Shown here piece after piece: positions 17,601-60,148 of a stretch of DNA of 64,000 nucleotides. The position numbers were made by a program, and so were the translations under genes. The stretch spans positions 5,917,501 through 5,981,500 of the forward strand of contig JAKSXM010000288.1 in the NCBI GenBank assembly GCA_022575985.1, given 5' to 3'. The stretch is from Anagrus nilaparvatae. Lineage: Eukaryota; Arthropoda; Insecta; Hymenoptera; Mymaridae. Each line of letters starts with the position of its first letter. The first letter of the stretch is position 1. The notes under the pieces were generated by a model. It made no database searches and was not told where the DNA came from. It saw only the letters and a list, made by a program, of their open reading frames with translations.

Positions 17601-19781
17601 ACGGTGTTTTTTACTTTGTAAATCCGCCTCGCCTTCATTTAATTTAGGGATAAAAACATCGTAAGTACTAATTTGTTAATAAAAACCATTCTTGCTGACA
17701 TTTTGCTCGATCAGCTCGCGGGCGAGACAGACTCTAGCGTCGTCTTGCTATCCGAGCCGCTTCGCAATAGGAACCAGCAATTCTCGTTAACCGATGACAC
17801 AGGTCGGTGCGCTATATGGCAACGAGGTCGTGCTCAGACGTCTATGTCCCGACATGAAAAAGGCAACTGCCACGTCTGGGCAAAGTGCGGTGATACAACT
17901 TTCATTAGTTGTTATTTGTCACAGAATGACACTATTGGGGTGTTCACCGCAAAGCTGGCCTCATTGGAGGAAACGATAAGGGAAGTGTCTGATAATATCA
18001 TGATTGCCGGGGACTTAAATGCCAGGGCCGTGGAATGGGGAATCCCAACCACGAACCGTAGGGGAACGTTGATGCTAGAGATGGCCGCTAGAACTGATCT
18101 GGTGGTCATGAACTCTGGGAACAATCCAACCTACGTAAGGCCAGGCTTTGGCGAATCGATCTCTGACGTCACTTTTGCCTCGGCTTGGAAAGGCAGGCGA
18201 TCTATAACCGTGTGGAAGAAAAGCGCGACGTAGCTTTCGTTCGCGCTCGCTCCCGCACAATGGAATGTTGGTAGTATAGGTGGATAGGTGATCCGAGGGG
18301 AAGTTGGACGCACCGACTTATCATCGACTTGGAAAGCTGGATGAATCGCGATCATGGGGAGGCAGACTTCTACCTCACACAGTTCCTAACTGGTCACGGT
18401 TATTTCCGCGATATGCTTTAAAGTAGCGCAAGGTGACATCTCCGGAATGCTTGCATTGACCGGGCGAGCCGGATACCGCTGAGCACACCTTTTTTGGGTG
18501 TCCTCGCTTCGATGAATGGAGGCCAGAAGAAATCATCCCAGAAATTCTGCGCAGTACCGCGGACTGGTACAGTGTGGCAGACTACGTACAGGCGACATTG
18601 ATTAAAAAAAACTTATAACCAGTTTGTGTAAACACAACCTAAATGCATGGAACATGTTTACTTCCAGCTGAGAAAACAAGGTATAATACAAATGTTACTC
18701 AATATTACAATACAATTTTCTATTTTTATAATTTGTAATTATCACCTCATTAGTTGTTAGGATTCTAAACCCAAACTATTTCGATTCCCTTTAAACCTGA
18801 ATTATTCTAAGTCCCTTAATCGATATTATTCCAAGTCCCTAAACCTGAATTATTCCAAATCCCTGAACCTGAATTATTCCAAGTCCCTAAATCGATATTA
18901 TTCTAAGTCCATAAACCTGTATTATCCTAAGTCCTTAAGCCCAGATTTTTCAAAGTCTATTAAAAGTATTTTATTTATTTATATATACTTACCTAATTAT
19001 TCTAAGTCTTATTTGACCCCCCCCCCTTAAATAGGACAAATTTGACCCCTTCCCTTAAATAGGACAAATTTGACCCCCCCCCCCTTAAAAAAGACGAATT
19101 TGACCCCCCCCCTTAAATAGGACAAAATTGACCCCCCTTAAATAGGACAAATTTGATCCCCCCCCCCTAAATTTTCAAGTTCTGAAGTACCCCCTCCCTA
19201 TAAACATGTTCCATGTTAAAAAGGAGGAAGGTTTCCTCTCGTAGGAAACTCTCCTCCTTTATTGACAGGGTATGGCGAAGAAATGCATTGGCTGCATTGT
19301 TTCCGGACCGAAGTAATACCTAAACAGGGAGTCCCGGTCCGGATTCTATGATATTGTAATAAATGCAGTAGGGTGGGGAGTTCAGTGGGTATTGCCCTAA
19401 ATTTGAGGTTGAGTCCCACATAACCATACAGAGATTTTTAAACAAATAATTTTATTTACGTTAATTTATTTAATAATTTATGATTTTTACGTTGTGCCAA
19501 TTTCATAATTCTAGAGCAAATATTAGTGAATTCCCCGTAGCTTAAAAGTATTAACTAATGATCTGTTTTTTTCTTACCTCAAAACGAAGATTACCTATTG
19601 GTGGAAGAGCATATGGAATACTTTCATAAGCTTCAAAAATTCTACCTTTATAAGATTTTTTAAAATAACCTTCAATTTTTCCAAAAGTAAGTTTAGCAAC
19701 AGGTCCAACATTAGCGCATAGTGAAAAACTCAATAAATGAACAAATAAAATTAGACTTAGTTTAAAATTATGATGTATCAT
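8653..19781 (-). CDS. secreted carboxylesterase, copy 1 (six exons)
   Basis: Type-B carboxylesterase/lipase of the alpha/beta-hydrolase fold, expected to hydrolyse carboxylic esters outside the cell. Exons read 19578-19781, 10389-10469, 9540-10314, 9129-9473, 8916-9036 and 8653-8845; every junction is GT-AG and phases match, giving 572 aa (family usual 540-580). Residues 1-23 form a signal peptide. Family landmarks are EDCLYLN (106-112), GNMGLKDQ, VHENI..FGGNP, ADEG with the acidic triad residue near 347, and GVSHADD with His472. Oddities: the oxyanion-hole H is Ile (IGGAF, 133-137). The nucleophile elbow reads GSSSAG (211-216) rather than GxSxG; aligned without gaps the nucleophile is Ser213 and position +2 is Ala. 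The C-terminus carries about 14 extra residues rich in R, E and T from a local repeat. Intron 1 is 9.1 kb and packed with transposons; the other introns are 66-92 nt. Confidence 0.9.
10553..10655. repeat. short hairpin repeat (GGCTTCGCC family) in esterase intron 1
   Basis: Inverted arms AAAGAATGGCCCAAATCG and AATTTGGGGCATTCTTT enclose a GC-rich centre containing GAGGCGAAGCC. It is the reverse orientation of the copy at 6160-6286 and nearly identical to the one at 46361-46465. The latter sits at the same place in intron 1 of esterase copy 3, so the insertion probably predates that gene duplication. Confidence 0.65.
10924..11083. repeat. small inverted repeat
   Basis: The block ATAATATTTTGTAAGCAAAA...GACTACATAAC is repeated in inverted form as GTATGTAGTC...GTTTACAAAATATTAA, with about 90 bp between. 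It may be the subterminal part of the decayed transposon that follows. Confidence 0.45.
11243..13560 (+). pseudogene. decayed DDE-type transposase interrupted by a fold-back insertion
   Basis: The first open part (11243-11476) has a Cys-rich stretch (CETCEEHEIH) followed by the FQNWRDHKVRYNNAR region. After frame breaks, the 11560-12110 region in shifting frames shows 'RVLFTN', 'MILWLDN(F)AGQSH', 'YFEPGHT.MSADS.HH' and 'YDFQDF'. These are the catalytic-region signatures of a transposase-like protein family common in arthropod genomes, whose name I cannot fix. At 12113-13272 a fold-back element interrupts it. The C-terminal part resumes at about 13415-13558, ending '...FWKDIQVADIPDLINENDPE...'. 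Multiple stops and shifts mark it as dead. It lies in esterase copy 1 intron 1, on the opposite strand to the esterase. Confidence 0.6.
12113..13272. mobile_element. 1.16-kb fold-back element nested in the transposase relic
   Basis: The ends CCTATTAACGCCTAAGCGG (12113) and CCGCTTAGGCATTAATAGG (to 13272) are inverted copies. Homology continues inward past ACACTTGCATTTTTCGGTAA for well over 100 bp. The interior is made of about 310-bp modules: one in plus orientation (from about 12250) and two in the opposite orientation (about 12560-12870 and 12870-13160). Each module contains CCCCACTTTAGGGGTTGATA-type and CACCCCCAGGGAGGGTTGCA-type blocks. There is no coding capacity, which makes it a non-autonomous fold-back transposon. 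Confidence 0.75.
13630..15269. mobile_element. 1.64-kb fold-back (near-complete palindrome)
   Basis: Arms begin CACACCAGTCTTGAAGG at 13630 and end CCTTCAAGACTGGTGTG at 15269. They stay alignable almost to the centre near 14430 (for example TTAAGAACCCTAAAATTGTG against its complement). Small asymmetric insertions occur near 14170 and 14700. No coding capacity; the short frames at 14037 and 15004 are reflections of each other's arm. Confidence 0.8.
15327..16616. mobile_element. 1.29-kb fold-back, family shared with 53.7-56.3 kb
   Basis: The outer block ATTTTGATCATAAAAAACCC is mirrored near 16600. The block AGCACTTGAAGTTTCCCATT (about 15397) is mirrored near 16535. Inner arm segments (AACCAAAATACTTCTGG, GTCACCTTTC, TTAATTGACTATAGC-type) also occur in the arms of the palindrome at 53735-56279 and in a fragment at 48620-49010. 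The centre is near 15970. Confidence 0.75.
16611..17478. mobile_element. 0.87-kb fold-back
   Basis: Left arm TATCTATCTAAAGTGGACT and CCCCAAATTTTAGCC; right arm GGCTAAAATTTGGGG and AGTCCATTTTGGATAGATA. The inner arms share the AGCCCAGGGCGAATTTTTGA block. It abuts the previous fold-back directly, so the two may be one composite insertion. Confidence 0.7.
17673..18640 (+). mobile_element. internally deleted R1-like non-LTR retrotransposon
   Basis: GC content and codon use differ sharply from the flanks. The frame 17673-18233 encodes an apurinic-like endonuclease domain of LINE type: GNCHVWAKCGDTTFISCYLS, then the AGDLNARAVEWG motif (near residues 112-123) and SDVTFAS. Directly afterwards, from about 18290, a different frame gives an ORF2 C-terminal region (RLIIDLESWMNRDHGEADFY, FLTGHGYF) and a Cys/His zinc knuckle (ECLH-stop-PGEPDTAEHTFFGC). 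The whole reverse transcriptase is missing. It is therefore an internal-deletion derivative, with one knuckle cysteine replaced by a stop. It is inserted in esterase copy 1 intron 1, opposite strand. Confidence 0.8.
18640..19215 (+). repeat. R1-like 3' UTR unit with 24-bp tandem repeats and C-rich block
   Basis: Between CATGGAACATGTTTAC (about 18650) and AAACATGTTCCATGTTAA (about 19202) lie degenerate tandem copies of CCCTAAACCTGAATTATTCC-AAGT (about 18790-18970). These are followed by about 32-bp repeats combining a long C run with TTAAATAGGACAAATTTGA (about 19015-19170). The same unit occurs at 30846-31185 and, on the other strand, at 20480-20700, 49270-49530 and 58925-59250. Confidence 0.7.
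19215..19440. other. GC-richer retroelement-like remnant
   Basis: The base composition (GGACCGAAGTAATACC, AGTCCCGGTCCGGATTC, GAGTCCCACATAACC) resembles the 3' region of an arthropod non-LTR element. No protein motif confirms it. Confidence 0.3.
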
Positions 19782-23159: not shown

Positions 23160-24687
23160 ATATATGTGCATTTCTAAGAAAAAATCCTTTTTATGAGCAT
23201 CAAAAATGAAGAAAAAAAAATTTACGAGGCCGCGACTGCCACCATGATTTTCTGGTAGTTTGAACCCTACAGAATGCAAAAAAAAAGCGTGAACACGAAA
23301 TCGGCGATGGATGCCAAAAAGATTTTGCCACTTTTATGTCAAAAACCGTGTTTTTCGTATCTAAGCTACCCCAAATTTTCAAAATAACTTTTTAGGTAAA
23401 TAAAATTTTAAAAAAATTGGTAAAAAATCTGATTGCCAGGAAAAAATCACTCCAGAAGAAAAAAAAACTTTTCTTTTTCCGATGAAATTTAGCCAAGTTA
23501 TCGTCAATTTAAGATTTTACTCAAATTTGTCTTAAAAAAGATTGAAGTTCTATATTGAAAAATGCCTGTTTCTGAACTTTAAACATGCATTACTCGCTTG
23601 ATTTTCATCGTAAAATAGTAATTTTTTTTTTTAAATCGATGTATTTTTCCCTGGCAATTCATTTCTTTATCAAAAAAATCATTTTTATGTACCAAATTTC
23701 AATTTTCAGGTCAAAAGCCTTTGAAAACTGTAAGTCGCAAAATTTACTTAACACCGTTTTCGACCCAAAAATTGAAATTTGGTCAATAAAAATGGTTTCT
23801 TTCTTGAAGAAATGAATACTCAGGAAAAAATTAATTGATTTAAAAAAAAAATTTATTATTTTACGATGAAAATCAAGCGAATAATGCATATTTTAAGTTC
23901 AGAAACAGGCTTTTTTCAATAGAATTTCAATCATTTTTAAGACAAATTTCAGCAATAATATGCATTACTCGCTTGATTTTCATCGTAAAATAATAATTTT
24001 TTTTTTTAAATCAATTAATTTTTCCCTGAGTTTTCATTTCTTCAAGAAAGAAATCATTTTCATTGACCAAATTTCAATTTTTAGGTCGAAAACTGTGTTA
24101 AGTTTTTTATCAATTTCAGTTTTCAAAGGCTTTTGACCTAAAAATTGAAATTTGGTACATAAAGATGATTTTTTTGATAAAGAAATGAATACTCAGGAAA
24201 AAATTAATCGATTTTAAAAAAAAAATTATTATTTTACGATGAAAATCAAGCGAGTAATGCATGTTTAAAGTTCAGAAACAGGCATTTTTCAATATAGAAC
24301 TTCAATCTTTTTTAAGACAAATTTGAGTAAAATCTTAAATTGACGATAACTTGGCTAAATTTTATCGGAAAAAGAAAAGTTTTTTTTTCTTCTGGAGTGA
24401 TTTTTCCCTGGAAATCAGAATTTTCACCAATTTTTTTAAAATTTTATTTACCTAAAAAGTTATTTTGAAAATTTGGGGTAGCTCAGATACGAAAAACACG
24501 GTTTTTGACATAAAAGTGGCAAAATCTTTTTGGCATCCATCGCCAATTTCGTGTTCACGCTTTTTTTTTGCATTCTGTAGGGTTCAAACTACCAGAAAAT
24601 CATGGTGGCAGTCGCGGCCTCGTAAATTTTTTTTTCTTCATTTTTGGTGCTCATAAAAAGGATTTTTTCGTAGAAATGCACATATAT
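23160..24687. mobile_element. 1.53-kb fold-back element
   Basis: The arms mirror about position 23923: features at x reappear at 47847-x near both ends. Outer arms contain TTCTGGTAGTTTGAACCCTA and TGCCACTTTTATGTCAAAAA. Inside are several alternating inverted copies of an approximately 150-bp module beginning ATGCATTACTCGCTTGATTT (about 23585, 23890, 23960, 24262). The outer ~150 bp is shared with the arms at 53735-56279. The small frames here are all arm reflections. Confidence 0.8.
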
Positions 24688-28990: not shown

Positions 28991-29908
28991 TTATTTTCAT
29001 ATAAATTATAACACACAAGAAAGAATGATCGAAATCTTGCCTCTTTTTGACTTCATCGGATTATTTTGTTCGTTGCTATGTTTATTTATGTATGCAGCTT
29101 AATGAAATTATAAACAATAATAAACAGCCTAAAAATATTAAATGGTTATGTTTGCATTTTAAAATTAAGATTTAAAAGTTATATTGGCATTTTTTAAAGA
29201 ATCAAACAATTTATAGAATTAAATAATTTATTATTTTGTGATTAATAGAAATAATAGAAATAATATAAATAAAAATCATTGAATTTGTGCTACATGTGCC
29301 GGTGCCTATTTTTGTGCCTGTGTCTTATGTTTGTGCCTAACTTTATTTTGACGTTTAAAAAGGTTATGCACTTTAATTTATGAAAATTTTAACGAAATTT
29401 TAAGAATTATTAAATAATATTTTAAATATTAAAAAAAAACTTATATAGGTTACCTTAACTAAAATAGGTTATTTTTTCAAATTCATTAGAAATTTATATA
29501 AAAATTAAAAAATAATTATTTTGAGTAATAGAATATAAAAAAAATAGTATTAACAAATAATAACGAAAATATAACCGACACTATAACAAATTTAATTAAT
29601 AGATTTTAAAAAAGTTATTTTGTTAAAAATAATATTTTTTTTTAATTTAATTATTATTATTTATTTAGGTACTAGATGCCGTCAATGACGGGTAGAGTGA
29701 AGCTGACCAAATTAGGAAAAACTTGAAGTATTTTTTTAATTTTGGGGTTTTAAAAGCTTTGATTTGATCGAGTTCAATATCAATGTGTAAATAAGACGTA
29801 AAAATCTATTAATAATAATTATACAGATCTCAAATTCTCTTTCCTTTCCCAAAGTTTAAATAATACGAATCAACTTGAAAAGTTTAATATGTTAATTTGT
29901 TGTATATT

Positions 29909-30845
29909 TGCCGGGGACTTAAATGCCAGGGCCGTGGAATGGGGAATGCCAACCATGAACCATAGGGAAACGTTGATCCTAGAGATGGCCGCTAGAACTG
30001 ATCTAGTGGTCTTGAACTCTGGGAACAATTCCAACCTACGCAAGGCCAGGCTTTGGTGAATCGATCCCTGACGTCACTTTTGCCTCGGCCGGGTTGGCAG
30101 AAAGAGTGGGTGGTTGGAGGGTGATGGATGGAGCCAATGGCAGTGACCATAATTACATCACCTTCAAAGTGCGTGATAGGGTCGTTAATCGGCCCCCGTA
30201 CAAAAAGCGCCCACTAGGCTGGAATGTGTCAAAGATGGACGAGGATAGATTTGTGGAATATCTTCGTGAAGAGTCCTCGTCTATCCCAGCCTGGCATGGA
30301 GGACCGACCACCCCTGGAGAGGCAGAGACTCTTGTCAAGAGGGTAACTGCTCTTCTGAGGGGAGCTTGCGATGCCTCTATGCTGCGTAAACTGTCCAGGG
30401 AGGGTGAAAGAAGCGTGTACTGGTGGAATGAAAAAATTGCGGAGCTTAGGCGGGTCTGTCACGGGGCACGCAAAAGACGGCAAAGAGCGCATGGCCGCCC
30501 AGAGCTGGCTACGCGCTCTGAAAAGTACAAGGAAGCCAAGCATAGGCTTGCAAAAGCCATCCGCCTCAGCAAGGCGCGCTGTCTTCGGTCGCTAAGAGAT
30601 GATATCAACAGCGACCCGTGGGGCCTGGGATATAAGGTTGTCATGGGTAAACTTAAGTCCGGGTGTGACAACACGATTGATGAAGCAGCGACCAAAAGAA
30701 TAGTGGACGCTCTCTTTCCGGATCATCCAAACCAACAACACCCGGCTTTGGGTGTCCCGAGGGAGCAAGTTCCGCTATTTAGCGAGGCGGAGATGCTTCA
30801 GGCAATTAGGTCAATGGAAAATAGGAAAGCGTCAGGACCAGGCTA
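29909..30845 (+). mobile_element. R1-like LINE fragment (endonuclease end to pre-RT linker)
   Basis: It begins abruptly at GCCGGGGACTTAAATGCCAG, i.e. at the AGDLNAR motif, and shares about 170 bp with the copy at 18007-18180. A frame break precedes the open frame 30094-30846, which encodes the end of the endonuclease (GSDHNYITF: the conserved S-D-H) and a basic linker. It stops at KASGPG, the known lead-in to LINE reverse transcriptase. The junction to the 3' unit is direct, so RT and C-terminal parts are deleted. Confidence 0.75.
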
Positions 30846-31185
30846 GGTATAATACAAATGTTACGCAACGTTACAATACAATTTTCTAAATTTATAATAT
30901 TTAATTATCACCTTACTAGATGTTAAGATTCTAAACTATTCTGATTCCCAAAATGCGTAAATTCTAGGACTCTAAATCAAAATTATCCCAAGTCCTTAAA
31001 TCCGAATTATTCCAAGTCATTAAATCGATATTATTCTAGGTCACTAAGACCAGATTTTTCAAAGTACCTAAATTGAAATTAATCGAACTCTCATTTGACC
31101 CCCCCCCCTTAAACCGGACAAATTTGATCCCCCCTTAATTTTCAAGTTTTGAGGTACCCCCTCCCCATAAACATGTTCCATGTTA
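30846..31185 (+). repeat. R1-like 3' UTR unit, second copy
   Basis: TAGGTATAATACAAATGTTA through to AAACATGTTCCATGTTAA, with the same degenerate TTATTCCAAGTC tandem repeats and C-run block as at 18640-19215. Confidence 0.65.
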
Positions 31186-33556: not shown

Positions 33557-36500
33557 TTAGAGAGAAATACTAATACTGTTCCAAAAGTTTTTATTCGCTA
33601 TATTTCTATTAATTTGTACTGTAAAATTTTTCGGCCCTGCTATATTCATAAATTTAAAATCAGAAGATGAAATCTTAGGCCAATTTACACCTGGTATTTC
33701 CGGTTCTCTGTAACAAAATATTTTATTTACAGTTTCATTTTAACTCATATAAGATTTTTAAACAAATTAATATTTACCCATTTTTTGCAATTGAATACCA
33801 ATAGTCAAGAACATCTTCTAACATCGCTCGATCATTTTTGGTTAAAGTAGGATTTATATATTTTCCAAATATAAAGAAAACATCATCCACGTGACTCACT
33901 CCTAAAAAAATTATGCATAATGAATGAAACTTTCGAATTATAAAATTTGAATAGGAAAAATTAACTACTATTAATATCATACCATAATTATATTCTGTTC
34001 CTGCAAATTTATCTATGTGGCTTTGATTGGCTCGAAACGTATAAAGAGCATAACGCACTGGACTTTTACTTACTGAGGAATGTAATTCCGCAGCATTTAC
34101 ACAATCAGTCACAAAATTTCTATCACCTATCATTTTGGCCATTAATTTGACTGTATCATAGTCATTAGAAAATTTTTTATCACCCATGTAAAACCTTCTT
34201 ATACTTTTAGCGACTTCTGTATAATTTTCGGCCAGCTTCATTTCATCGAAATGGTATATTAATGGTGCTAAGGTTTCCCATTTTTGGTTAAGCAAAGCTA
34301 AATTCCTTTTATCGCTTTTTATAAGATCTAACGATAATATTAAATAAAATCAGAAATTTGCTACACAGACTAAATAAAAAGTATTTTAAATTATTACTTA
34401 TTGCCAAATAGAGACCTTCATCGGCTACATTTTCTATGATCAAAGGTACATCATTTATAATACCTTTTTTGATTATATTTACAGGTTTATCGTTTATAAA
34501 ATAATTTTTGCTCATCTTTTCTGCTACAGGAACAAATAAGGAAGCGAAAAAATTCAAGCTTCCATAAAATTTATCTGATACTGAAAGAACACCAGTAGAT
34601 ATTTCTTCGACGGATTTCTTTTTTAAGCAGTTCTTTAAAGCCAAAGTATGGTTTGTTGGGCAATGTAAAGCGGCACCTAAGGCCTTAGTTATTTTCCATG
34701 GGTTATTCGTAAACGACCATATCGATAATGCACTACCACTAAAAGCCATCCCACTGTGGAATAATCCAGCACTTAAAGGTGACAGATAATGATAATGAAC
34801 ACAAGCTCCTGCTGAACTGGGTCCAACTAGAGTTATTTTTTTAGGATTACCCCCAAAAAATTGTATGTTTTCGTGGACCCATTTAAGGGCTAAACTTTGG
34901 TCTTTTAAGCCCATATTTCCAGAAATAACCTTATCACCAGTGCTTAAAAATCCAAGAGGTCCAATACGATAATTGATGGTTACTAGGATTAAATCTCTAT
35001 CCATGAGATACTTTTGATCCCAACCTTCGACAGCCCCTCTTTGAAATGCACCTCCATGAATAAAAAATAAGACAGGCAAGTTTGTTGTATTTGTACTTGA
35101 TACAACAGGGCGATAAATATTTAAATACAAGCAATCTTCATGACCCTCAATTCGATGTTTTGTAAAACTCTTAAAATAATTTTAATAATTTTGTTTATTA
35201 AATAAATTAAATAAATTAAAAACAAAAATTTTAGATGTTTTAATAGATTTTTACCATAGTAAGAACTTGCGGACATTTATTTGATAGTTTTGTGGCCATT
35301 ATTTTTGGAGGCCATGATTTGATTGGAACTGGAGGCTAAAAATTATTTTCAAATAGATATGTTTTATATGTTTTATATGTTTTACTTCAATTTATTTAGT
35401 TATTTTTTGAAAGTAAATATTTTTTAAACAGCCAAACTAATTATTTATTTGAATATATTAAATTTCTTTACATTCTTGCCTATTAATGCCGGAACGGAAG
35501 ATTTCACAAACTTAACGAAAAAATGAAGATTTTTAATAGACATAAGGCTAAAAATTGCTTCCTGTAGGTAAAAGTGGACTTCTTAAAAGTGGTCTTTTTT
35601 TTTTAATTTTGCCGTTGGTTTTTACCTAGCATTCTTTTTGTGTACGCGAAAAATAGAGATGAAAGGAGGTAAAACAAAAATTAGTAGAAAACGATGGATA
35701 AGTATTATAAATAAATAATGGCATTTAACTATCATAAAATGCGATAAATAAATTCACCCCCTGGGGTAAACATAGCATAAAATATTTTAAATACTTAATT
35801 CCACAAAAAAAATAAAAAAATAAATAAAATGTTATCATAGTTTTTATGTATTTATATATTTAGGGGTTGTTTTAACCCCCAGAGGGGTGAATACATTTTA
35901 TGAAGGTTAAATTTCCTTAAAATATTTTTAAATGCTTGACTACAGAAATAAAAGTCAAAAAATAAAATTTTAACATGGCTTTTATGTATTTATAAATTTA
36001 GGGGTGGTTTTACCCCCACCCAGGGGGTGAATTCATTTTATGATGGTTAAAATAGCATAAAATATTTTTATTAATACTTGAATGCCCAAAAAAAAGTAAA
36101 AATCATGTTTTTTTTTAATTTTTTTAAATTTAGATGTAGTTTTCACCCTCTATAATTAACCCATGTATCCTAATTTTGGTGAATTATAAAAAAGTCGTAA
36201 TATATTTTTAATTCATTATCAAAAAATAAAATATGTTTGATCATATTAACTTTACTTTCGAAATTTTGCGAAAAATTCCTAAAAAGGGGTAGTTTTTTTT
36301 GTTTTAATGGTGTTCCACTATTTTCCAGCCTGTCAACAGGTTTCGACCCCCCCCCCCCCCCACATTTTGACTTCAGAAAAGGTGAAATAATTATTGCGCA
36401 ATCTTAATTTATTTAATAATTTATGATTTGTATGTTGTGCCGATTCCATAATTCTAGAGAAAATATTATTGAACTCCCCGTAGCTTAAAAATATTAACTT

Positions 36501-37530: not shown

Positions 37531-40500
37531 AGGCAGTGTCTATCCGAACAAACCGTTTTTCACGGCAACCGTCTCTAACGGCTGGGATTTCGACCGTTTT
37601 TAACAAAATCCAACCGTTTCAAACGGTACCCGAGAAGAATTTCACTTGCCATTGAAGGCCAAATCGTCTACCGTTTTTAACCGTCTCATAGTAAATAATG
37701 GTTAGTCAGCCGTTTCTAACCGTAGTAAAGAAGAAATTAGTGTATGAGCCGTTTTTAACCGTAGGAAAATAGATGTACAAGTTCCTGCCGTTTTAAACCG
37801 TACCAAAGTTAATAATAATTGCTCTGCCGTTTCTAACCGTATTAAAGCATAAATTAATGTATGAGCCGTTTTGAACCGTAGGAAAATAGATGTACAAGTT
37901 CCTGCCGTTTAGAACCGTGTGAAAAGAACTTAATATACCGCCTGCCGTTTTTAACCGTGTCAAAGTAAATAATAGTTGCTCTGCCGTTTCTAACCGTATT
38001 AAAGTATAAATTAATGTCTGAGCCGTTTTTAACCGTAGGAAAATAGATATACAAGTTCCTGCCGTTTTGAACCGTGTCAAAGTAAAAAATATTTGCTCTG
38101 CCGTTTCTAACCGTATTAAAGTAGAAATTAATATCTGAGCCGTTTTTAACCGTAGGAAATTAGATGTAGAAGTTCCTGCCGTTTTGAACCGTGTCAAAGT
38201 AAAAAATAGTTGCTCTGCCGTTTCTAACCGTATTAAAGTATAAATTACTGTCTGAGCCGTTTTTAACCGTAGGAAAATAGATATACAAGTTCCTGCCGTT
38301 TAGAACCGTGTGAAAAGAACTTAATATACCGCCTGCCGTTTTTAACCGTATCAAAGTAAATAATAGTTGCTCTGCCGTTTCTAACCGTATTAAAGTATAA
38401 ATTAATGTCTGAGCCGTTTTTAACCGTAGGAAAATAGATATACAAGTTCCTGCCGTTTAGAACCGTGTGAAAAGAACTTAATATACCGCCTGCCGTTTTT
38501 AACCGTGTCAAAGTAAATAATAGTTGCTCTGCCGTTTCTAACCGTATTAAAGTATAAATTAATGTCTGAGCCGTTTTTAACCGTAGGAAAATAGATATAC
38601 AAGTTCCTGCCGTTTAGAACCGTGTGAAAAGAACTTAATATACCGCCTGCCGTTTTTAACCGTGTCAAAGTAAATAATAGTTGCTCTGCCGTTTCTAACC
38701 GTATTAAAGTATAAATTAATGTCTGAGCCGTTTTTAACCGTAGGAAAATAGTTGTGCAAGTTCCTGCCGTTTTGAACCGTGTCAAAGTAAATAATAGTTG
38801 CTCTGCCGTTTCTAACCGTATTAAAGTAGAAATTAATGTCTGAGCCGTTTTTAACCGTAGGAAAATAGTTGTGCAAGTTCCTGCCGTTTTGAACCGTGTC
38901 AAAGTAAATAATAGTTGCTCTGCCGTTTCTAACCGTATTAAAGTAGAAATTAATGTCTTAGCCGTTTTTAACCGTAGGAAAATAGATGTACAAGTTCCTG
39001 CCGTTTTGAACCGTGTCAAAGTAAATAATAGTTGCTCTACCGTTTCCAACCGTATTAAAGTATAAATTAATGTATGAGCCGTTTCTAACCGCTGGAAAAT
39101 AGATGTACAAGCTCCTGACGTTTTAAACCGTGTGAAAAGAACTTATTGAAACGCTTTAGAAAATCTTTAAAAAGAATAAGGGGGCCGAAGGCCCCGTGCG
39201 CTTGCACTTTAAAATCTTAAATTGTTCTTTATATTTTCACCATTAAAAAAGTAAATTATTTTGTTTTGAATGAAAGTTGGACATAAGTCTCATGTGCTAC
39301 GTTACAATAGTTCCTTTTAAATTTTTTATTATGCATACAGCAAGAAAAAATCTGTCGTTGAAAATATAATACTTTTCAAAAAAGGCGCACGGGGCCTTCG
39401 GCCCCCTAATGCTTAGTTACATCAGTTTTTCAGGATTTCTACAATGGTCTAAAACGGCAGATAACAAATTTATTAATTTAACATGATTAAAAATGGCTCA
39501 GAATCAATTTTATTAAATCCACATGGTTCTTTTCGTACGACTCAATGAGTCAGGAATTCGCATACCTATAATCCTACGGTTATAAGTGCCTCAGACATTA
39601 ATTTCTACTTCATTACGGTTAAAAACGGCAGAGTAACCATTATTTACAATTGAACGATTAAAAATGGCAGGTGTTTCTTTAAGTTCTCTAACCACGGCTC
39701 AAAACGGCAGGAACTTGTATATCTCTTTTCTTACGGATAGAAACGGTTCAGACATGAATTTCTACTTTATTACGGTTAGAAACGGCAGAGTAACCATTAT
39801 TCACTATAGGACGGTTTCAAACTGCAGGCGTTTCATTAATTTCTTTTGACACGGCTCAACACCTCAGGAACTTGTAATTCAATTTTTCTACGGTTAGAAA
39901 CGGCTGAAACATTAATTTCTAGTTTAATACGGTTAGAAACGGCAGAGTAACCTTTACTTACTATGGGACGGTTAAAAACGGCAGGGGTTTCATTAATTTC
40001 TATACATAAGGCTAAAAACGGTTGAAACTTGTAAATATATTTTCCTACGGTTGGAAACGGCAGAGTAACCATTTCTTACTATGGGACGGTTTAAAACGGC
40101 AGACTACTCTTTATTTTTTATTTTCACGGCAAAAAAACGGCAGAAACTTGTAAATATATTTTCCTACGGTAGGAAACGGCAGAGTAACAATTATTTATTG
40201 TTGGGCGGTTATAAACGGCTGGCTTCTCAATATGTTCTATTCTCACGGCTCAAAACGGCAAGAGCTTGTAGATCTATTTTTCTACGGTTAGAAATGGCTC
40301 AGACATTAATTTCTACTTTACTACGGTTAGAAACGGCTGAGTAACCATTGTTTACTATGGGACGGTTAAAAACGGCTGGTGTTTTATTAACTTCTATACT
40401 CACGGCTAAAAACGGCAGAAACTTGTACATATATTTTCCTACGGCTAAAAACGGCCAAGCAATCATTATTTACTATGGGACGGTTTAAAACGGCAGGCCT

Positions 40501-40972
40501 CTCAATATGTTCTATTCTCACGGTTCAAAACGGCATGAGCTTGTAGACCTATTTTCTTTTTTGTACGGTTAGAAACGGCTCAGACATTAATTTCTACTTT
40601 ACTACGGTTAGAAACGGCAGAGTAACCATTATTTACTATGGGACGGTTAAAAACGGCAGGAGTTTCATTAAGTTCTATACTCACGGCTCATAACGGCAGG
40701 AACTTGTACATCTGTTTTCCTACGGTTAATAACGGCTCAGACATTAAATTCTACTTTTTTACGGTTAGAAACGGCAAAGTAACTATTATTTACTATAGGG
40801 ACGGTTAAAAACGGCAGAATGATTTGGCCTTTAATGGGGCATGCCTTTTAATGGCAAGTAAATTTCTTCTCGGGTGCCGTTAGAGACGGTTGATTTTTGT
40901 TAAAAACGGACGAAATCCCAACCGTTAGAGACGGTTGCCGTGAAAAACGGTTTGTTCGGATAGACACTGCCT
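37531..40972. mobile_element. 3.44-kb fold-back element built of 39-bp GCCGTTTNNAACCGT monomers
   Basis: Terminal inverted repeats begin AGGCAGTGTCTATCCGAAC at 37531 and mirror at 40972, running at least 150 bp (through CACGGCAACCGTCTCTAACG and ACCCGAGAAGAA). The left arm (to about 39150) is an array of 39-40-bp monomers, each a constant 15-bp box plus a 24-25-bp tail. Four tail types follow in fixed order: A TGTCAAAGTAAATAATAG.., B ATTAAAGTATAAATTAAT.., C AGGAAAATAGATATACAA.., D GTGAAAAGAACTTAATAT... Together they make 117-bp (ABC) and 157-bp (ABCD) higher-order units. The right arm (about 39600-40850) is the same array inverted and more diverged. Long stop-free frames (for example 38420-39049 minus) are artefacts of the 39-bp period. 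No transposase is visible. Confidence 0.8.
39180..39406. repeat. core of the fold-back, bounded by GGGGGCCGAAGGCCCC hairpins
   Basis: GGGGGCCGAAGGCCCCGTGC (39180) faces its reverse complement GCACGGGGCCTTCGGCCCCC (to 39406). Each arm is also a small hairpin by itself. About 185 bp of AT-rich sequence without coding capacity lies between. This is the turning point between the two monomer arrays. Confidence 0.7.
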
Positions 40973-40984
40973 TAATAAATATGA

Positions 40985-42590
40985 TAAATAAAATATTTAT
41001 TTGCACAAAACAACACTGTGTTGACATTTTGAGCGCGCGCTTTAAAGGCCGGCCAAACACTGATTTTAATATCTTGATGGAATAATAATTTAAAATTTTT
41101 AAAACACGTTTATTAGATATCATTATTATTATTGTTGTTGTTTATGTTTATCGCTATATTATATAAGGAATTTGATTTAAAATGTAACTGGTCATTTAAA
41201 ATTTGTGATGATTGAAATTTAAATGCCTTATATATTTTAAATTCCTCGAAAGCGTTCTTAACATTTCCTTTATTGCATATATGTAGTGGCTTTAAGTATT
41301 TCTGTAAACTGGAGCAGTTATGATTTTCTTTTATCATATGTTTAGCGAAGTTTGACTTTAGGTTTTCTGCGACTATGGGAACTCTTGGATTTTTTGATGC
41401 TATGTGTTCCGTGTATCTTTCTGAGAATTTTCTGCCAGTTTGACCGATGTGAAAGGATTCGCAGTTGTCACAATAAAGCTTATATATGCCCAATTTTTCT
41501 TCTAAAGGTATATTATGAGTATTCCTGAGTAACTTGGATAGTTTATTATTGGTTTGAAAACTAACTTGGTAGTTGAATTTTTTGAAATTATTCATCAGAA
41601 TAAAAGGAGTATGGTTACCGTACATTGCGGATACGTATTTTGTTTCTGGTTTAATGATGCAATTTTTGTGTTTATAGATTAATTTTTCTATTATATTGCT
41701 GTTATATCCATTGGCTATTGCTATGTGTTTTACGGTACTGACTTTAATATTGTAGTTATCTTTGCTGAGTGGAAAAGTGAGTAATCTGTGTACAAAGGCA
41801 TTGAAGCTGGCCATTTTCTGCGAGTAAGGTTGATATGAATCTGCATGTATGACGATGTCTGAAGTTGTTTGTTTTCTGTATATATTAAATTCAAATTTGT
41901 CTCCTGATTTTAAAATATTGATATCCAAAAAGTTTATTTTATTTTCATTTTCTACTTCCAGTGTAAACTGCATATTATTGTTGATACTGTTTAAATATGC
42001 TTTTAAACTGTCTAGTTGTCTATTGGTACCATTGTATATGATGAAAATATCATCCACATATCGAGAATATGAAATAATGTTTTTTGTGTAAATATTATTG
42101 TTTGAAAAAAGATATTTTTGTTAATAGTGGTCTAGGTATATGTCAGCTAAAAAACCGGATAATGGTGAGCCCATTGCCAAGCCTTTATTTTGTGTATAAA
42201 ATTTTTTATTAAAGGTGAAATAATTCTGTGATAAAACTGTTGTTAATAATTTAATTATTTCATTTATTTGTTGATTGTTGAGATTATTATTATTCATTAA
42301 GTTTTCTTTAACAAAAGCTATTGTTTCTGTGACTGGAACTTTTGTAAATAAACTGACTATGTCGAATGATGATATTTTATATGCTTTCTTTAAATTTATA
42401 TTTTTAATTTTATTTATGAATTCTATGCTGTTTTTTACTCTATGATTGTTGTGTATTTTAATATTAGAAGATAAAATATCCAAGATGGCTTTCTTGGTTC
42501 TGTATGATGGTGGAGGTTTCCGATTAATTACTGGGTGAGCAGGAATTTCTTGTTTGTGTGTTTTTAATAGTCCATTAAATTCTTAGTGTT
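40985..42590 (-). pseudogene. Penelope-like element: reverse transcriptase + GIY-YIG, 5'-truncated
   Basis: Reading down from about 42575: FNGLLKTHKQEIPAHPVINR (PLE RT motif region 2), SSFDIVSLFTKVPV (motif A with catalytic Asp), GLAMGSPLSGFLADIYLD (motif B), one in-frame TAA (42121-42123), then RYVDDIFIIYNG (motif C, YVDD). Next come the thumb and a C-terminal GIY-YIG region: IYKLYCDNCESFHIGQTGRK, ERYTEH, with the YIG Tyr replaced by His. The frame ends at 41113 after an N-rich tail. One stop and lost N-terminus make it inactive; otherwise it is well preserved, so fairly young. A hammerhead motif lies just beyond its 5' end on the opposite strand. Confidence 0.85.
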
Positions 42591-44205: not shown

Positions 44206-47171
44206 TTAGAGAGAAACACTAATACTGTTCCAAAAGTTTTTATTCGCTATGTTTTTATTAATTTGTACTGTAAAATTTTTCGGCCCTGCTATATTCATAA
44301 ATTTAAAATCAGAAGATGAAATCTTAGGCCAATTTACACCTGGTATTTCCGGTTCTCTGAAACAAAATATTTTATTTACAGTTTCATTTTCACTCATATA
44401 AGATTTTTAAACAAATTAATATTTACCCATTTTTAGTAACTGAATACCAATAGTCAAGAACATCTTCTAACATCGCTCGATCGTTTTTGGTTAAAGTAGG
44501 ATTTATATATTTTCCAAATATAAAGAAAACATCATCTACGTGACTCACTCCTAAAAAATTTAAAACAAATTGTGCGTAATGAATAAAACGTTCGAATTAT
44601 AAAATTTGAATAGGAAAAGTTAACTACTATTAATATCATACCATAATTATATTTTGTTCCTGCAAATTTATCTATGTGGCTTTGATTGGCTCTAAACGTA
44701 TAAAGAGCATAACGCACTGGACTTTTACTTACTGAGGCATGTAATTCCGCAGCATTTATACAATCAGTCATAAAAAATCTATCACCTATCATTTTGGCCA
44801 TCAATTTGACTGCATCATAGTTTGTAGAAAATTTTTGATCACCCATGTAAAACCTTCTTATACGTTTAGCGACTTCTGTATAATTTTCAGTTAGCTTCAT
44901 TTCATCGAAATGGTATATTAATGGTGCTGCGGTTTCCCATTTTTGGTTAACCAAAGCTAAATTTCTTTTATCGCTTTTTATAAGATCTAACGATAATATT
45001 AAATAAAATCAGAAATTTGTTGCACTAAAAAAGATAAGTATTTTTTATAATTAGGACGTCTAAGGTATAGTTTTACAAATTTTAATCTGAAAGCAAATTC
45101 GACCTTTTCTTCATTGATAAAAAGTGTGGGTAAAGTTTCACTTTACGCATACGTAGACGTCATAATTATATAAAATACTTTTTAAAACACGATCTAAAAG
45201 AAACTGTGATTTGATACAGGATCAAGAAGTATAAGCAAAGATAACTCAATTATTATAACTCAATTAGTTACCTATGTGTATAATTCTTTTTTCTATATTA
45301 AAAACAGTATCTTTAAAAACTTGTTTTAAAAAACACTTTCAAATTATTACTTATTGCCAAATAGAGACCTTCATCGGCTACATTTCCTATTATCAAAGGT
45401 ACATCGTTTATAATACCTTTTTTGATTATATTTATAGGTTTATCGTTTATAAAATAATTTTTGCTCATCTTTTCTGCTACAGGAACAAATAAATAAGCGA
45501 AAAAATTCAAGCTTCCATAAAATTTATCTGAGACTGCAAGAACACCAGTAGATATTTCTTCGACGGATTTCTTCTTTAAGCAGTTCCTTAAAGCCAAAGT
45601 ATGATTTGTTGGGCAATGTAAAGCGACTCCTAAGGCCTTGGTTACTTTCCATGGGTTATTCGTAAACGACCACATTGATAATGCACTACCACTTAAAGCC
45701 ATCCCACTGTGAAATAATCCAGCACTTAAAGGTGACAGATAATGATAATGAACACAAGCTCCAGCAGAACTGGATCCAAGTAGAGTTATTTTTTTAGGAT
45801 TACCCCCAAAAAATTGTATGTTTTCGTGGACCCATTTAAGGGCTAAACTTTGGTCTTTCAAACCCATATTTCCGGAAATAGCCTCATCACCAGTGCTTAA
45901 AAATCCTAGAGGTCCAATGCGATAATTGAAAGTTACTAGGATCAAATCTCTATCCATGAGATACTTTGGATCCCAACCTTCGACAGTTCCTTTTTGAAAT
46001 CCACCTCCATAAATAAAAAATAAGACAGGCAAGTTTGTTGTATTTGTACTTGATACAACAGGGCGATAAATATTTAAATACAAGCAATCTTCATGACCCT
46101 CAATTTGATGTTTTGTAGAACTCTTAAAATAATTTTAACAATTTTATTTATTAAATAAATTAAAAGCAATAATTGTTTAAATAAATTTTTACCATAATAA
46201 GAACTTGCGGACATTTATTTGGCAGTTTTGCGGCCTTTATTTTTAAAGGCCATGATTGGATTGGAACTGGAGGCTAAAAGTTATTTAAAATTAATTTTTT
46301 TTCACTTTTATTTAATAAAATTTTTTTATTTTTAACTTGTACATTAATTATAGTATATTTACGGCTCGCATCCAGAAAACTAAAGAATGGCCCAAATCGT
46401 ACGTAAATCACCTTCCGAGGCGAAGCCAAGTGTGATAAACTTCAATTTGGGGCATTCTTTATTTATGAAAGAAAAAATATATGCCATATAAAATTTTCTG
46501 CCTTTGTGGCGAGAAATAGAATTTTTGCCGGACGCGCAGATTCCGGGAAATACGTGCCTTCGTGCCGCAGACCAGAAAAATATTCATTGGCAAGGCATTA
46601 TACAGGACAAAATCCTCCATAGCTATAAAGATTTATACATGAGCCATTTCTTCCTGTATTATTTTTAGAAATACACGTAAAACTTTTATCGATACAGAAG
46701 ACCGTGTAGATGAGCCGCGATATTTTACAAATTAGAGTAAGAAAAAAATATTTGCACCATCTAATAGTTAATTCAATGACGATTAAGCCCATAAAAAAAT
46801 TAAATTTTTCATAAAAATGTAGATATGGAGGTTTTTGATCTTTAGGGCAGTAATGGTATGTTTTTTTAAACATAATAAAGTGCTCTATGACCGTTAGTGA
46901 ACTCCCCTTATTAGATATAAAATTAAATAGCTTAAAAGTATTGATTATGATCTGTTTTTTTTCTTACCTCAAAACGAAGATTTCCTATTGGTGGAAGAGC
47001 ATATGGAATACTTTCATAAGCTTCAAAAATTCTACCTTTATAAGATTTTTTAAAATATCCTTCAATTTTTCCAAAAGTAAGTTTAGCAACAGGTCCAACA
47101 TTAGCGCATAGTGAAAAACTCAATAAATTAACAAATAAAATTAGGCTTAGTTTCAAATTATGAAGTAACAT
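44206..47171 (-). CDS. secreted carboxylesterase, copy 3 (six exons)
   Basis: Exons: 46968-47171, 46193-46273, 45351-46122, 44642-44986, 44427-44550, 44206-44356; GT-AG throughout, phases consistent, 558 aa. Signal peptide as in the other copies. The oxyanion-hole segment reads YGGGF (133-137, canonical H replaced by Y), the nucleophile elbow GSSSAG (211-216), acidic residue in GNVADEG, His471 in GVSHVDD. The C-terminus is NFWNSISVSL. Exon lengths and the KRBA2 relic downstream show it is the closest sister of copy 2. Intron 3 (364 nt against 66-70 nt in the others) contains a 146-bp MITE. Intron 1 holds a hairpin repeat homologous to that in copy 1. Confidence 0.93.
45036..45181. mobile_element. 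146-bp MITE in esterase 3 intron 3
   Basis: Inverted ends AAGTATTTTTTATAATTAGG (left) and ATAATTATATAAAATACTTT (right), with the GACGTCT / AGACGTC block inside. It is absent from the same intron in copies 1 and 2, so it inserted after the gene duplications. Confidence 0.75.
46361..46600. repeat. hairpin repeats (GGCTTCGCC family) in esterase 3 intron 1
   Basis: TTACGGCTCGCATCCAGAAA and AAAGAATGGCCCAAATCG...GGGGCATTCTTT are as at 10553-10655. An adjoining GC-rich block (about 46500-46590, GCGCAGATTCCGGGAAATAC) resembles 6072-6160 and 62140-62210. Confidence 0.6.
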
Positions 47172-56279: not shown

Positions 56280-57321
56280 TGTTCGAAATGTAGACACCGT
56301 ACGCTGTCCTTTTGCAATTTACCCTTTAATAACTTTCGATATTAATATTTAGCTTAAAATTTGAACTTAAATTTTTCTGTAGGGTGCATATCACGTATTT
56401 AGGTCTTAAAAATACATTTTTTTCCTTAAAATAAATTTTTATGCAGTCCTCTTAGTTTATCGTCATATATAAGTCTGTACCTCGATTTCAGCTATTTTTA
56501 AGCTTTCCACATTTTAAAAGTGCGCAGTCTATATTTATGCACTTGAAAGCTCTGCCATATTTTTTTCCCACTTAACTACTCATATATGAACCGCAAAAAA
56601 CTTAAAATTTTAAATATTAAAGCTTTAACTATGAAAATTATAAATATTAAATTTTTAAAATGCCTTTACAAAGATACAATGTCACCACCGTACATTTCGT
56701 TTTCTCTAAGTGTATGCAATATTTTACGTTAATACATCTTGTTCAGTGATGTGTTTTGATGAAAAAATAAGTTACCCAGAGTTTGAGAAAATTTGATGGC
56801 TTCATTACAGAATTATTTCAATAATGCACATAAAATGTCGCAACCGTACGCATAAGTAAAAAATCCCATAATAATAACGCGTCGAATTCATTTTTACATT
56901 TTTAGCAGTACCATTGAAAATTTTAGGTATTTTTAGACCTTGATAAACATAAAAGTACAAAAAAATTGAAAGAAAAAAGATAGTAAGTAAACAATAAAAA
57001 AATATACAGTTCCCATGAAAAACACTCATATGCATGCATGCGTACACACACCCAGAAGAGTTATTTTAAAAAAATCGGTTTATTAAAACGTGCTTATCTT
57101 AACTGAATGTGTTAGATAGTAATTTCGAAAATTGGTTTTTCTAAAAAAATAATAACATGCCTTTTATCACCAAATGTAAATACAAATAAGAGTAGATAAA
57201 AATTTATCTATTATAATTTAAAAAAAACTAATTTTTTTAAAAAATTTTGTGTGAAGTTAGGTGATGTGTCTTCTTTATAATAAACATATTTTATATTTTT
57301 CTAACAGAAAATACTTATAAA
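56280..57321. other. intergenic / Toll 5' region
   Basis: No other gene seen. TTTTTCTAACAG at about 57297-57308 just before the ATG could be the acceptor of a 5' UTR intron. Confidence 0.35.
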
Positions 57322-60148
57322 ATGTGCATGTTTTATTTTCTTTTCATTTTATTGCTGGTTACCATGCATTTAGAATCTGTGAAGAGTGAGGTAAAGTTTT
57401 CATATGAAAGGAGAATTGAATATGGTAATTCTTTTAAATTGACAAAATCAACGAAAGATGGAAGCTTTTCCGATATGATCTTTTATCGAATCAGCAATTT
57501 AACAAATAAATTTTTTAAAAATTATCCTGATTTACAATATATCGACTTAAATTTCCAAGGCAAGCAAGATATTAACCTTGGAGAAGTTGATCCATATTTA
57601 ATAAAAGGTAATATAATTATTTTTAATTTATTGGTTATTTTAAAAATTAATGCGTTATTTAAATATAAATTTTTAGATTTAGAAAAATTAGAATATTTTT
57701 ATGCTGATGGCACTAAAATTAAATTTTCAAGTGATTTTTTTAAAAACTCGAAAAAATTGTTACATTTGAGGCTTAAGAATAATTTTTTAAAGGAAATTGA
57801 GTCAAATACGTTTAAAGAACTGAATAATCTTATTGAATTAAGTTTGTCTTATAATAATTTAACTTTCTTAAAAGTTGACGTATTTAAGCACATGAAACGT
57901 TTAGAATATTTAGATCTTGATTGGAATAATATTAGTAAAATTCCACCTACAATTTTCCATGACCTAAAAAAATCAATTCGATTCCAGAAAATTTGTTTAA
58001 AAATAATAAAAATATTCTTAAAATACGAATTAATGACAATCTTTTAGAATTTCTTACAACGAATCGACATTTGAAAATTCTCCATTTCAATACTCTAAAA
58101 ATTTAAAACTATTAAATCTTACAAATAATAATATGAGTGATTATTTACAAGACTGGATTCAGGATCGATCTAAATCACTTATTTTAAGAAATAATTCAAT
58201 TAATAAATTAGATGTAATTAATTACATTCAAAATTTTTTACTTAAATGAAAATTTATTTAAATTTTGTTTTTTACAGTTACATGAGATGCTGAATGACTA
58301 TTATGCACTTACTGATCATTCGTATGTTGATCTTTCATTCAATAAAATTTCGCACATAAATGTAAATTTAAAAAATGTGGGTGTACATAGAAATGGAAAA
58401 AAAAAATTTATCACTAATGTCGATATTGGAAATAATCCGATCAAATGTGATGCTAAAATTTATGATTTTCTTAAATTTATCAAAAAAAAACAAAATCAAA
58501 TTGTTTTTAATGTGGATAAACTTATTTGTCATGATTCAGATTTTAACACTGGTAAAAAAGTATCTGATTTGCATCCTGAAAATTTTGAATACAGTCTACG
58601 TTATTACAACTTTTCGTCTGAAAATGCATGTACTAGAATTTGTGATTGTCGGATTAGACCTGTTGATAAATTAATGTCTGTTAATTGTACAAATCAAGGT
58701 CTTCAAAAAGTTCCAGAACTTTTAAATATTCAAAATATTTCGAAAATTTGGTTGTACTTGGATTCAAATAATATAACGGAGTTTCCAGATATGTATAAAT
58801 CTGGTTACAATATCGTTGAATTATTGGATCTGTCGAATAATCTAATTACGAAATTTGATGAGAATATTTTTACCATGAACTTAAAGGTAAAATCTTTCTT
58901 ACGAGAGGCTTGTATTTTTATTAACATGGAACATGTTCATTAGATGGGGTATTTGAAAAAGTTCGGCTCGGCAGGGGGGGTGGGTTAAAAAGTGACATTT
59001 TTAGGGGGGTGAAATGGACTTAGAATATTTTCGATTTAGGGACTTAGAATAATTTAAAGTAGGAGTCAGGGCCTGATTAGGCCCTGATAAGAACAAGAAC
59101 TTAGAATACTTTAGGTTTCTGGAGTTAGGATAATTTATATTTCGGGATTTATTGTAATTTAGGTTTTTGGATTTATTACTGTTATGAGTGAATATGTTCC
59201 ATGCTCGTTGGTTGTGTAGTTACAGAAACCGGTTATAAATTTTTTTTCTACATAAAATGTACAGATTTTAATTTAATTAATAAATTTTAATTACAGGATT
59301 TAAGACTTTCAAACAACAATATATCATCATCATTGAATGCAACAAAGCTGGAAAAGTATTTTAAATCAATTAAAAAATTAAAATTTGACAACAATCCATG
59401 GGACTGCGAATGTTCCGTAGTTGATTTCATTCAAAATAATAATTTGTCTGATACCCATGCATATAATTTAAAAAATATTACTTGCTTTAAAGAAAAAATG
59501 TCAGTTAATCAGTTCAAAAGAGAAAAATGTTCGAATTTCTTTTACTCTCAAAACTTTGTAATTATTTGTGTTGCTTTATCAACTTTGAGTATCATAATTG
59601 GAATTATAGTTTGTTTATTAATTCGATACTGGATGCATGTAAAAATATTTTTATATTCTCATAACATCGGCCATTTTTGGATCAATAAAAATGATTTTCA
59701 TCTTGATAAAAAATTTGATATTTTTCTTAGTTATTGTTATAAAGATGAAAACTTTGTTTTAGAAGAATTATTACCAAAAATAGAAGAAGGACCAAATTCA
59801 TACAAAGTGTGCATTCATTTACGAGATTGGAAAGCTGGCGAATGGATTCACAGCAATATTATACAATCAGTAAAAAATTCTAAATGCACCCTTATCGTAT
59901 TATCAGAAAATTTCATCAATAGTGTCTGGGGAATGGTGGAATTTCGAGTTGCGTACAGTGAAATGCTAAAAGACAAACGTACTCGAGTTATTATAATTTT
60001 GTTCGAGGACTTAAAAAAATTTAAACGTTTAGATTCTGAATTGAAAGGTTACTTACAACTGAATACTTATGTTAAGTGGAGAGATCCATATTTTTGGAAA
60101 AAGTTGTTGAAAGCCTTACCAGAGCCAATGGTATCGGTAGCGAATTGA
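57322..60148 (+). CDS. Toll-like receptor (Drosophila Toll type), exon 2 frame-broken
   Basis: Single-pass innate-immunity/developmental receptor; Toll-type proteins usually bind Spatzle-like ligands and signal through MyD88. Exons: 57322-57607, 57677-58213, 58278-58886, 59297-60148. In order: signal peptide (1-22), LRRs (LEKLEYFYADGTKIKF, LLHLRLKNNFL, LIELSLSYNNL, LEYLDLDWNNI), first LRRCT (IGNNPIKCDAKIYDFLKF), LRRNT (CTRICDCRIRPVDKLMSVNC), more LRRs, second LRRCT (FDNNPWDCECSVVDFI), transmembrane segment (FVIICVALSTLSIIIGIIVC), TIR domain (FDIFLSYCYKDENF, IHLRDWKAGEWI BB-loop, SKCTLIVLSENF, DPYFWKKLL). The LRRCT-then-LRRNT order marks the Toll-1 class. Exon 2 has two single-base-equivalent frame breaks, near 57970 (in A7) and 58056; allowing for both restores phase at the next splice site. 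About 761 codons, with fewer LRRs than Toll. Either a young pseudogene or assembly errors. Confidence 0.85.
58925..59250 (-). repeat. R1-like 3' UTR unit inserted in Toll intron 3
   Basis: Starts AACATGGAACATGTTCATTA and ends GTGAATATGTTCCATGCTCG then AAACCGGTTATAAA. It includes the GATTTAGGGACTTAGAATA repeats and G-run. It accounts for the intron size (410 nt against 64-69 nt for the other two). Confidence 0.7.

What the first reader, a model, noticed from the sequence alone, without database searches (positions are those of the whole stretch)
37531..40972. Fold-back element made of two opposed arrays of a 39-bp 'constant box + recurring tail' monomer
Seen: a 15-bp box GCCGTTTNNAACCGT every 39-40 bp, several dozen copies, with four tail types in fixed cyclic order (117- and 157-bp higher-order units). 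The array is inverted in the right half around a core flanked by GC-rich hairpins, and is enclosed by TIRs of at least 150 bp. Each box has two direct CCGT half-sites 10 bp apart, one helical turn, which suggests a protein-binding array (transposase or a host Myb-like factor, since CCGTT resembles the Myb core). The left arm is homogenised and the right arm is diverged, so the arms evolve independently. Fold-back elements with tandem-repeat arms are known (Drosophila FB, Galileo), but I know of none with this box-tail grammar.
Basis: partly seen in the sequence, partly recalled or inferred. Interest (0 to 1): 0.85.

Follow-up and report, generated by a model that had tools for sequence, protein, structure and literature searches.

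The report
Fold-back jumping gene with repeat arms
This looks like a recently active, non-coding insect jumping gene whose two halves carry opposed arrays of a short repeated box; it is a new family of a known fold-back type, useful for asking why such elements pile up repeats in their arms.

Summary
Window 37532-40971 is one copy of a fold-back DNA transposon family in a 489-Mb insect-like genome. I read 21 copies: all share the inverted ends (GGCAGTGTCTATCC...), the core and inverted box arrays. In 10 of 21, not this one, an exact 9-bp target duplication abuts the ends; exchanged pairings give 1 of 420. The window holds a paralogous empty site for copy L048. This copy differs from L043 by 3 substitutions and one 157-bp unit, so jumping was recent. 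The left arm has 7 to 84 monomers; the right arm keeps nearly one pattern, with deletions.

New here: the plain ends hold three inverted dyads, CCGT-N5-ACGG (21/21 left, 18/21 right). The array box is that 13-mer with one base changed, suggesting arrays amplified from a terminal transposase site. Boxes diverge less than tails.

No transposase with these ends was found. The 9 bp point to the Mutator/Rehavkus group; Galileo's 7 bp are not met. Closest are Rehavkus, Tm1, Muta1, FB, Tetris: a new family of a known kind. The Myb idea is unsupported.

The parts
37532..37661 (+). left terminal inverted repeat, begins GGCAGTGTCTATCC
   Evidence: 131-bp arms 91-92% complementary; 40 scored genomic matches at 95-100% identity, of 147 candidates
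40842..40971 (-). right terminal inverted repeat
37553..37565 (.). inverted dyad 1, CCGTTTTTCACGG
   Evidence: mirrored at 40938-40950 in the right end
37569..37581 (.). inverted dyad 2, CCGTCTCTAACGG
   Evidence: mirrored at 40922-40934
37614..37626 (.). inverted dyad 3, CCGTTTCAAACGG
   Evidence: mirrored at 40877-40889 as CCGTCTCTAACGG: spacer changed, half-sites kept
37670..39155 (+). left array: 38 monomers of 39/40 bp (15-bp box + tail A, B, C or D), homogenised, variable in number between copies
39180..39406 (.). core: about 227 bp bounded by inverted GGGGGCCGAAGGCCCCGTGCGC, TAA on both sides; MITE-like; found in all 21 copies read (in L037 the left hairpin motif is not intact)
39444..40815 (-). 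right array: inverted, diverged, about 29 called monomers in a pattern shared with deletions among copies
30114..30122 (+). paralogous empty site for copy L048: single, uninterrupted target 9-mer (TTGGAGGGT) in a non-LTR-like retroelement; L048 has CTGGAGGGT on both sides of its element

Best explanation
A non-autonomous fold-back DNA transposon that moves by cut and paste, using in trans a transposase of the Mutator-like/Rehavkus/FB group (9-bp target duplication). Shown: shared ends, 9-bp duplications in about half the copies, one empty site, near-identical copies, and left-arm changes mostly in whole 117/157-bp units. Inferred: (a) the three CCGT-N5-ACGG dyads in the plain end are the primary transposase contact; (b) a 39-bp piece holding one such site, with ACGG changed to ACCG, was tandemly amplified inward, so each arm is a ladder of secondary sites that raises local transposase concentration; (c) A-B-C(-D) units expand and contract by in-register unequal exchange, slippage or gap repair, mostly in the left arm, while the right arm is carried along.
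For: Copies: search with the end, 40 scored of 147 candidates, all at 95-100% identity; all 20 ten-kb loci fetched contain both inverted ends; the exact 14-mer end occurs 76 times in the genome against 1 for the reversed-pattern control, forming 25 close inverted pairs 2.3-6.6 kb long, with 26 ends unpaired at that stringency. Duplication: 9 of 21 exact 9-mers by script, 10 with a one-base boundary correction for L046; two more (L039, L041) carry the left 9-mer displaced by 3 bases. At the same boundary 7, 10 and 11 bp fit in 0 of 21 and 8 bp in 1 (L046, uncorrected). Exchanged pairings: 1 of 420. Empty site: L048 flanks match window 29904-30122 and 30115-30813 at 93%, with one 9-mer in place of two. 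Recency: window copy against L043, L031 and L032, 3 substitutions each over about 3 kb. Array: left arm 7 to 84 monomers on the same core. The 6 left-arm indels between the window copy and its four closest copies (L031, L032, L033, L043) are 117, 234, 117, 314, 705 and 157 bp, all sums of 117 and 157; over all nine pairs aligned, 9 of 11 left-arm indels are such sums. Site model: dyads 3 per end in 21/21 left and 18/21 right ends (2 in the other 3); 0 of 20,000 shuffles have 3. In the window copy's right arm, departures from class consensus are 17/338 in constant box positions against 81/630 in tails, Fisher p=8e-5. Binding of a transposase domain to sites in the tandem repeats inside long ends is reported for Galileo (PMC3688188, abstract and passages).
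Against: No transposase was found: none of 150 scored MULE-domain places (of 341 candidates) lies within 28 kb of any of the 76 exact ends, and the two atypical spans sampled held array or other repeats, not a gene. 11 of 21 copies, the window copy among them, lack an exact adjoining 9-bp duplication. Two of 11 left-arm indels are single monomers (39 and 40 bp), not whole higher-order units. The left/right difference in dyad half-sites (0/24 against 7/76 elsewhere) is not significant, p=0.19. Monomers are related, so the Fisher p is optimistic; low box divergence could also come from conversion among all monomers, which share the box.
Confidence: 0.72

Rival explanations
1. Same mobile element, but the arrays are passive: they expand by recombination, and the box is conserved only because every monomer carries it and converts its neighbours. 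No binding role.
For: Indels mostly in whole higher-order units (9 of 11 left-arm indels) and one-sided homogenisation are what recombination alone can give. Three copies have only 7 left monomers (L035, L037, L042).
Against: Boxes are also the better kept part in the diverged right arm, whose tails differ by 18-23% in five copies. The plain ends hold the same half-site as three dyads.
Confidence: 0.33
2. A Galileo-like (P superfamily) fold-back element bound by a THAP-domain transposase.
For: Galileo has long ends with internal tandem repeats that bind its THAP domain, and chimeric copies without matching duplications.
Against: Galileo duplications are 7 bp; here 0 of 21 fit 7 bp and 10 of 21 fit 9 bp.
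Confidence: 0.05
3. A host-factor array (Myb-like, chromatin or small-RNA source) that happens to lie in a transposon, kept because the host uses it.
For: Regular direct half-sites about one helical turn apart, and inverted arms that could give hairpin transcripts (sequence).
Against: Dozens of dispersed, closely similar copies with variable arrays are what a mobile element predicts; chromosomal niche and host use were not tested. The box does not fit the recalled Myb consensus.
Confidence: 0.06
4. A local inverted duplication of a satellite array, not mobile.
For: Tandem monomers in higher-order units look like satellite DNA.
Against: Same ends and core in 21 dispersed copies, 9-bp duplications and an empty site.
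Confidence: 0.01

Closest known systems
Rehavkus (e.g. Rehavkus-1_TC, Tribolium)
   Same: 9-bp duplication and a minisatellite before the 3' end (PMC6446971, passages); [quoted passage not shown]
   Different: the Rehavkus group encodes a transposase with a PHD finger; here no gene, and 39/40-bp monomers with box and tails. Sequences were not compared
Tm1 (Meloidogyne, Phantom-class MULE/Foldback)
   Same: mostly 9-bp duplications, composite inverted ends with variable numbers of a short internal motif, members without a transposase (PMC3169594, passages)
   Different: about 14-bp motif and asymmetric 7-bp terminal motifs; no 39-bp box-tail higher-order array in the passages seen
Muta1 (Aedes aegypti MULE)
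   Same: 8- or 9-bp duplications, 145-bp ends with a palindromic terminal motif and a subterminal repeat array; classed there as type 2 Foldback (PMC5225508, passages)
   Different: 12-bp repeats with 3-4-bp spacers, 9 copies; encodes a FLYWCH transposase
Galileo (P superfamily, Drosophila)
   Same: fold-back ends; repeats hold transposase THAP sites; chimeric copies without matching duplications (PMC3688188, PMC3573991, passages)
   Different: 7-bp duplications, not met here
Tetris (Drosophila virilis)
   Same: fold-back, variable tandem repeats in the ends, repeats proposed to derive from the outer end, no transposase found (PMC4079207, passages)
   Different: 220-bp repeats; seeds satellites; no higher-order units or dyad in the passages seen
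Drosophila FB
   Same: fold-back with tandem-repeat arms (recalled; the MULE link of FB-NOF is recalled too)
   Different: not compared by sequence

Membership tests
Fold-back (FB-type) transposons, as a structural class | long inverted ends made of tandem repeats, variable between copies | tested here: met
   21 of 21 copies
Fold-back (FB-type) transposons, as a structural class | dispersed insertions with target duplications and empty sites | tested here: met
   10 of 21 exact 9-bp; one empty site, L048
Mutator-like / Rehavkus superfamily | 8-11-bp, mostly 9-bp target duplication | tested here: met
Mutator-like / Rehavkus superfamily | mobilised by a MULE/Rehavkus transposase sharing the ends | tested here: inconclusive
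   150 MULE-domain places scored of 341 candidates, none within 28 kb of the 76 exact ends; a census of diverged ends was asked for and never answered (tool busy)
Rehavkus | PHD-finger transposase | not tested
   no reference sequence on hand; PHD-type transposases were not searched for
Galileo / P superfamily | 7-bp target duplication (Galileo) | tested here: not met
   0 of 21 fit 7 bp, 1 of 21 fits 8 bp (that one, L046, is 9 bp after boundary correction)
Satellite DNA only | arrays without transposon ends | tested here: not met
   890 of 1926 exact genomic boxes lie in the 21 copies read; the rest were not all placed
Myb-binding array | match to the animal Myb site | tested here: inconclusive
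   by eye against a recalled consensus only; AAACGG lacks the pyrimidine

The most novel reading that the evidence does not exclude
The element shows how a fold-back arm is born and grows. An inverted two-headed transposase site in the plain end was changed by one base into a direct-half-site box, captured in a 39-bp monomer, and amplified into an A-B-C-D higher-order array that changes length, mostly in 117/157-bp steps, nearly each time the element spreads, and mainly in one arm. Array length would then be a fast-evolving dial for transposase capture.
Probability: 0.25. Interest if true: 0.62.

Novelty: new member of a known kind. Interest (0 to 1): 0.42.

Why it matters
Why fold-back elements accumulate repeats in their arms is open. 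Here a young family offers copies that differ by about three substitutions but by one or more array units, a slowly changing arm as internal control, and a candidate ancestral site in the plain end. That makes the binding-ladder idea and the satellite-birth idea directly testable.

Tried and rejected
Transposase hunt. PF10551 over the own genome gave many MULE-domain places (150 scored of 341), none near the exact ends. The one MULE region read (L051) was taken from the top of the list and is not linked to these ends. A gap inside a box cluster on C1 was sampled (1.2 kb) and held other repeats. The longest end pair (6.57 kb) was sampled at two places of 401 bp and held array. A census of diverged ends (24-mer, 3 mismatches) was asked many times and never answered.

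Other. The phage records hold no match to the end and the viral contigs none to an 18-mer of it; both collections may leave out near relatives of this genome. Chimeric copies: a left flank of one copy matched the right flank of another exactly in 1 of 420 pairings; L046 left and L045 right share TAATAATAA, the duplication of both, so no reciprocal exchange is shown. The species was not identified: the esterase ORF has 2934 relatives, and in the best 120 shown the named ones are nearly all insects, at 39-59% identity. The core was considered as a nested TAA-flanked MITE; outside the elements I searched only the window, the flanks in the 20 loci and L051, and found one 27-bp match, in L034 beside another box array, so this stays open.

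Full report
What is there. The box GCCGTTTNNAACCGT occurs 34 times exactly on the + strand and 16 times on the - strand of the window, all inside the reported interval. With one mismatch there are 63 matches against 0.10 expected, all between 37670 and 40815. Left-arm monomers are 39 bp (tails A, B, C) or 40 bp (tail D) in the order A-B-C or A-B-C-D. Over the forward arms of 21 copies the steps are A to B 171, B to C 167, C to A 114, C to D 56, D to A 58, against 12 A to C and 9 A to A (monomers called by edit distance, '?' of 613; two copies, L034 and L048, were stored reversed there, so their right arms are in this count).

It is a transposon family. A search with the 131-bp end gave 147 candidates, of which 40 were scored, all 95-100% identical. 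All 20 hold both inverted ends (the match to the right end of L044 lacks the outermost bases); with the window copy, elements run from 1,905 to 5,898 bp. The exact 14-mer end occurs 41 + 35 times in the genome (control 1 + 0) and forms 25 close inverted pairs, 2.3 to 6.6 kb, with 26 ends unpaired at that stringency. Exact boxes number 1024 + 902 in the genome against 4 + 6 for the control pattern; the 21 copies hold 890 of these 1926.

Insertion. A 9-bp duplication abuts GGCAGTG and CACTGCC in 9 of 21 copies by script, 10 with L046, whose right end carries a point change that shifted the script's boundary. L039 and L041 have the left 9-mer 3 bases away from the right end, L037 has 2 mismatches. 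The other 8, the window copy among them, do not match. Exchanged pairings match in 1 of 420, and that pair shares the target TAATAATAA, seen on both L045 and L046. L048 sits in a retroelement; the window carries a related copy of that retroelement without the insert, 93% identical on both sides, with a single 9-mer at 30114-30122. So the step from empty to filled site is shown for one copy; for the others nothing was tried beyond the flank comparison.

Age and array change. Over 626 bp of core and right arm the window copy, L031, L032 and L033 are identical, and the mean over 210 pairs is 98.3%, lowest 92.2%. Whole-copy alignments: window against L043, 3 substitutions and a 157-bp indel; against L032, 3 substitutions and 234 and 117 bp; against L031, 3 substitutions and 117, 6 and 281 bp; against L033, 17 substitutions and 314 and 705 bp. 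The six left-arm indels here are all sums of 117 and 157; the 6 and 281 lie in the right half and are not. In the other pairs aligned, left-arm indels are 234 and 40 (L039/L047), 117 and 234 (L044/L049), 39 (L045/L047) and none (L034/L048; L031/L032 repeats an indel already counted), so 9 of 11 in all are whole higher-order units and 2 are single monomers. Left arms have 7 to 84 called monomers on the same core; right arms share one pattern with deletions. A 6.57-kb pair sampled at two points is array at both, so longer left arms probably exist.

Ends and box. The first 110 bp of each left end hold three CCGT-N5-ACGG dyads in 21 of 21 copies; right ends hold three in 18 and two in 3. No end holds the direct form CCGT-N6-CCGT there. 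Shuffles of the end give at least one dyad in 21 of 20,000 and three in none. The array box CCGTTTNNAACCG is the same 13-mer with ACGG changed to ACCG. Between left and right end consensus, half-sites differ at 0 of 24 and other positions at 7 of 76, which is not significant (p=0.19). In the window copy's right arm, constant box positions depart from class consensus at 17 of 338 and tails at 81 of 630 (p=8e-5); pairwise rates in five copies show lower box than tail divergence in all ten arms. Monomers in a copy are related, so the p-value is optimistic. I read this as secondary transposase sites amplified from a terminal site; the order of events is inference.

Filing. 9 bp fits the Mutator-like group, Rehavkus and Tm1 (PMC6446971, PMC3169594, PMC5225508, passages) and not Galileo's 7 bp (PMC3573991, passages). 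Membership stays open because no transposase with these ends was found: 150 scored MULE places of 341 candidates, none within 28 kb of 76 exact ends; MULE places not scored, diverged ends and PHD-type transposases were not examined. Copies without duplications resemble the chimeric Galileo copies, which were attributed to ectopic exchange; I could not show partners here. Literature searches run: open-licence PubMed Central only; none of the passages I read described a 39-bp box-tail higher-order array or a dyad-to-box change, and Repbase entries were not available.

Verdict. Real, mobile, young; a new family of a known structural kind, with unusually legible arm evolution.

Noticed in passing
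window 9037-10326, 33774-35181, 44532-46134 (-): Three similar carboxylesterase gene copies (ORFs); Pfam COesterase tested on and found in two of them; named relatives of one include insect venom carboxylesterase-6-like proteins.
   Followed up: partly
window 41113-42582 (-): Penelope-like retroelement remnant next to the element: RVT_1 match below the curated cut-off; the GIY-YIG part and the name are my reading by eye, from recall.
   Followed up: no
window 57265-60148 (+): Toll-like gene: leucine-rich stretches by eye, then a TIR domain by Pfam.
   Followed up: no
L034 about 5600-5951: A second, partial box array with a 27-bp fragment of the core hairpin, about 1.5 kb beyond the end of a full copy.
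   Followed up: no
L048 4087-6510; window 17871-18184 and 29904-30846: A family of non-LTR-like retroelements; the stretch right of the element in L048 is open for 808 codons, so that family may be young too.
   Followed up: partly
L051 (G000:C342:1229400-1231700): A MULE-like transposase ORF of at least 464 codons, with a SWIM-like end by eye (recalled motif); one of 150 scored MULE-domain places in the genome.
   Followed up: no
window 23404-24443 and L052: The 373-bp tandem unit of the window and its surroundings match L052 on another contig at 83-88%, so it is part of a dispersed repeat.
   Followed up: partly
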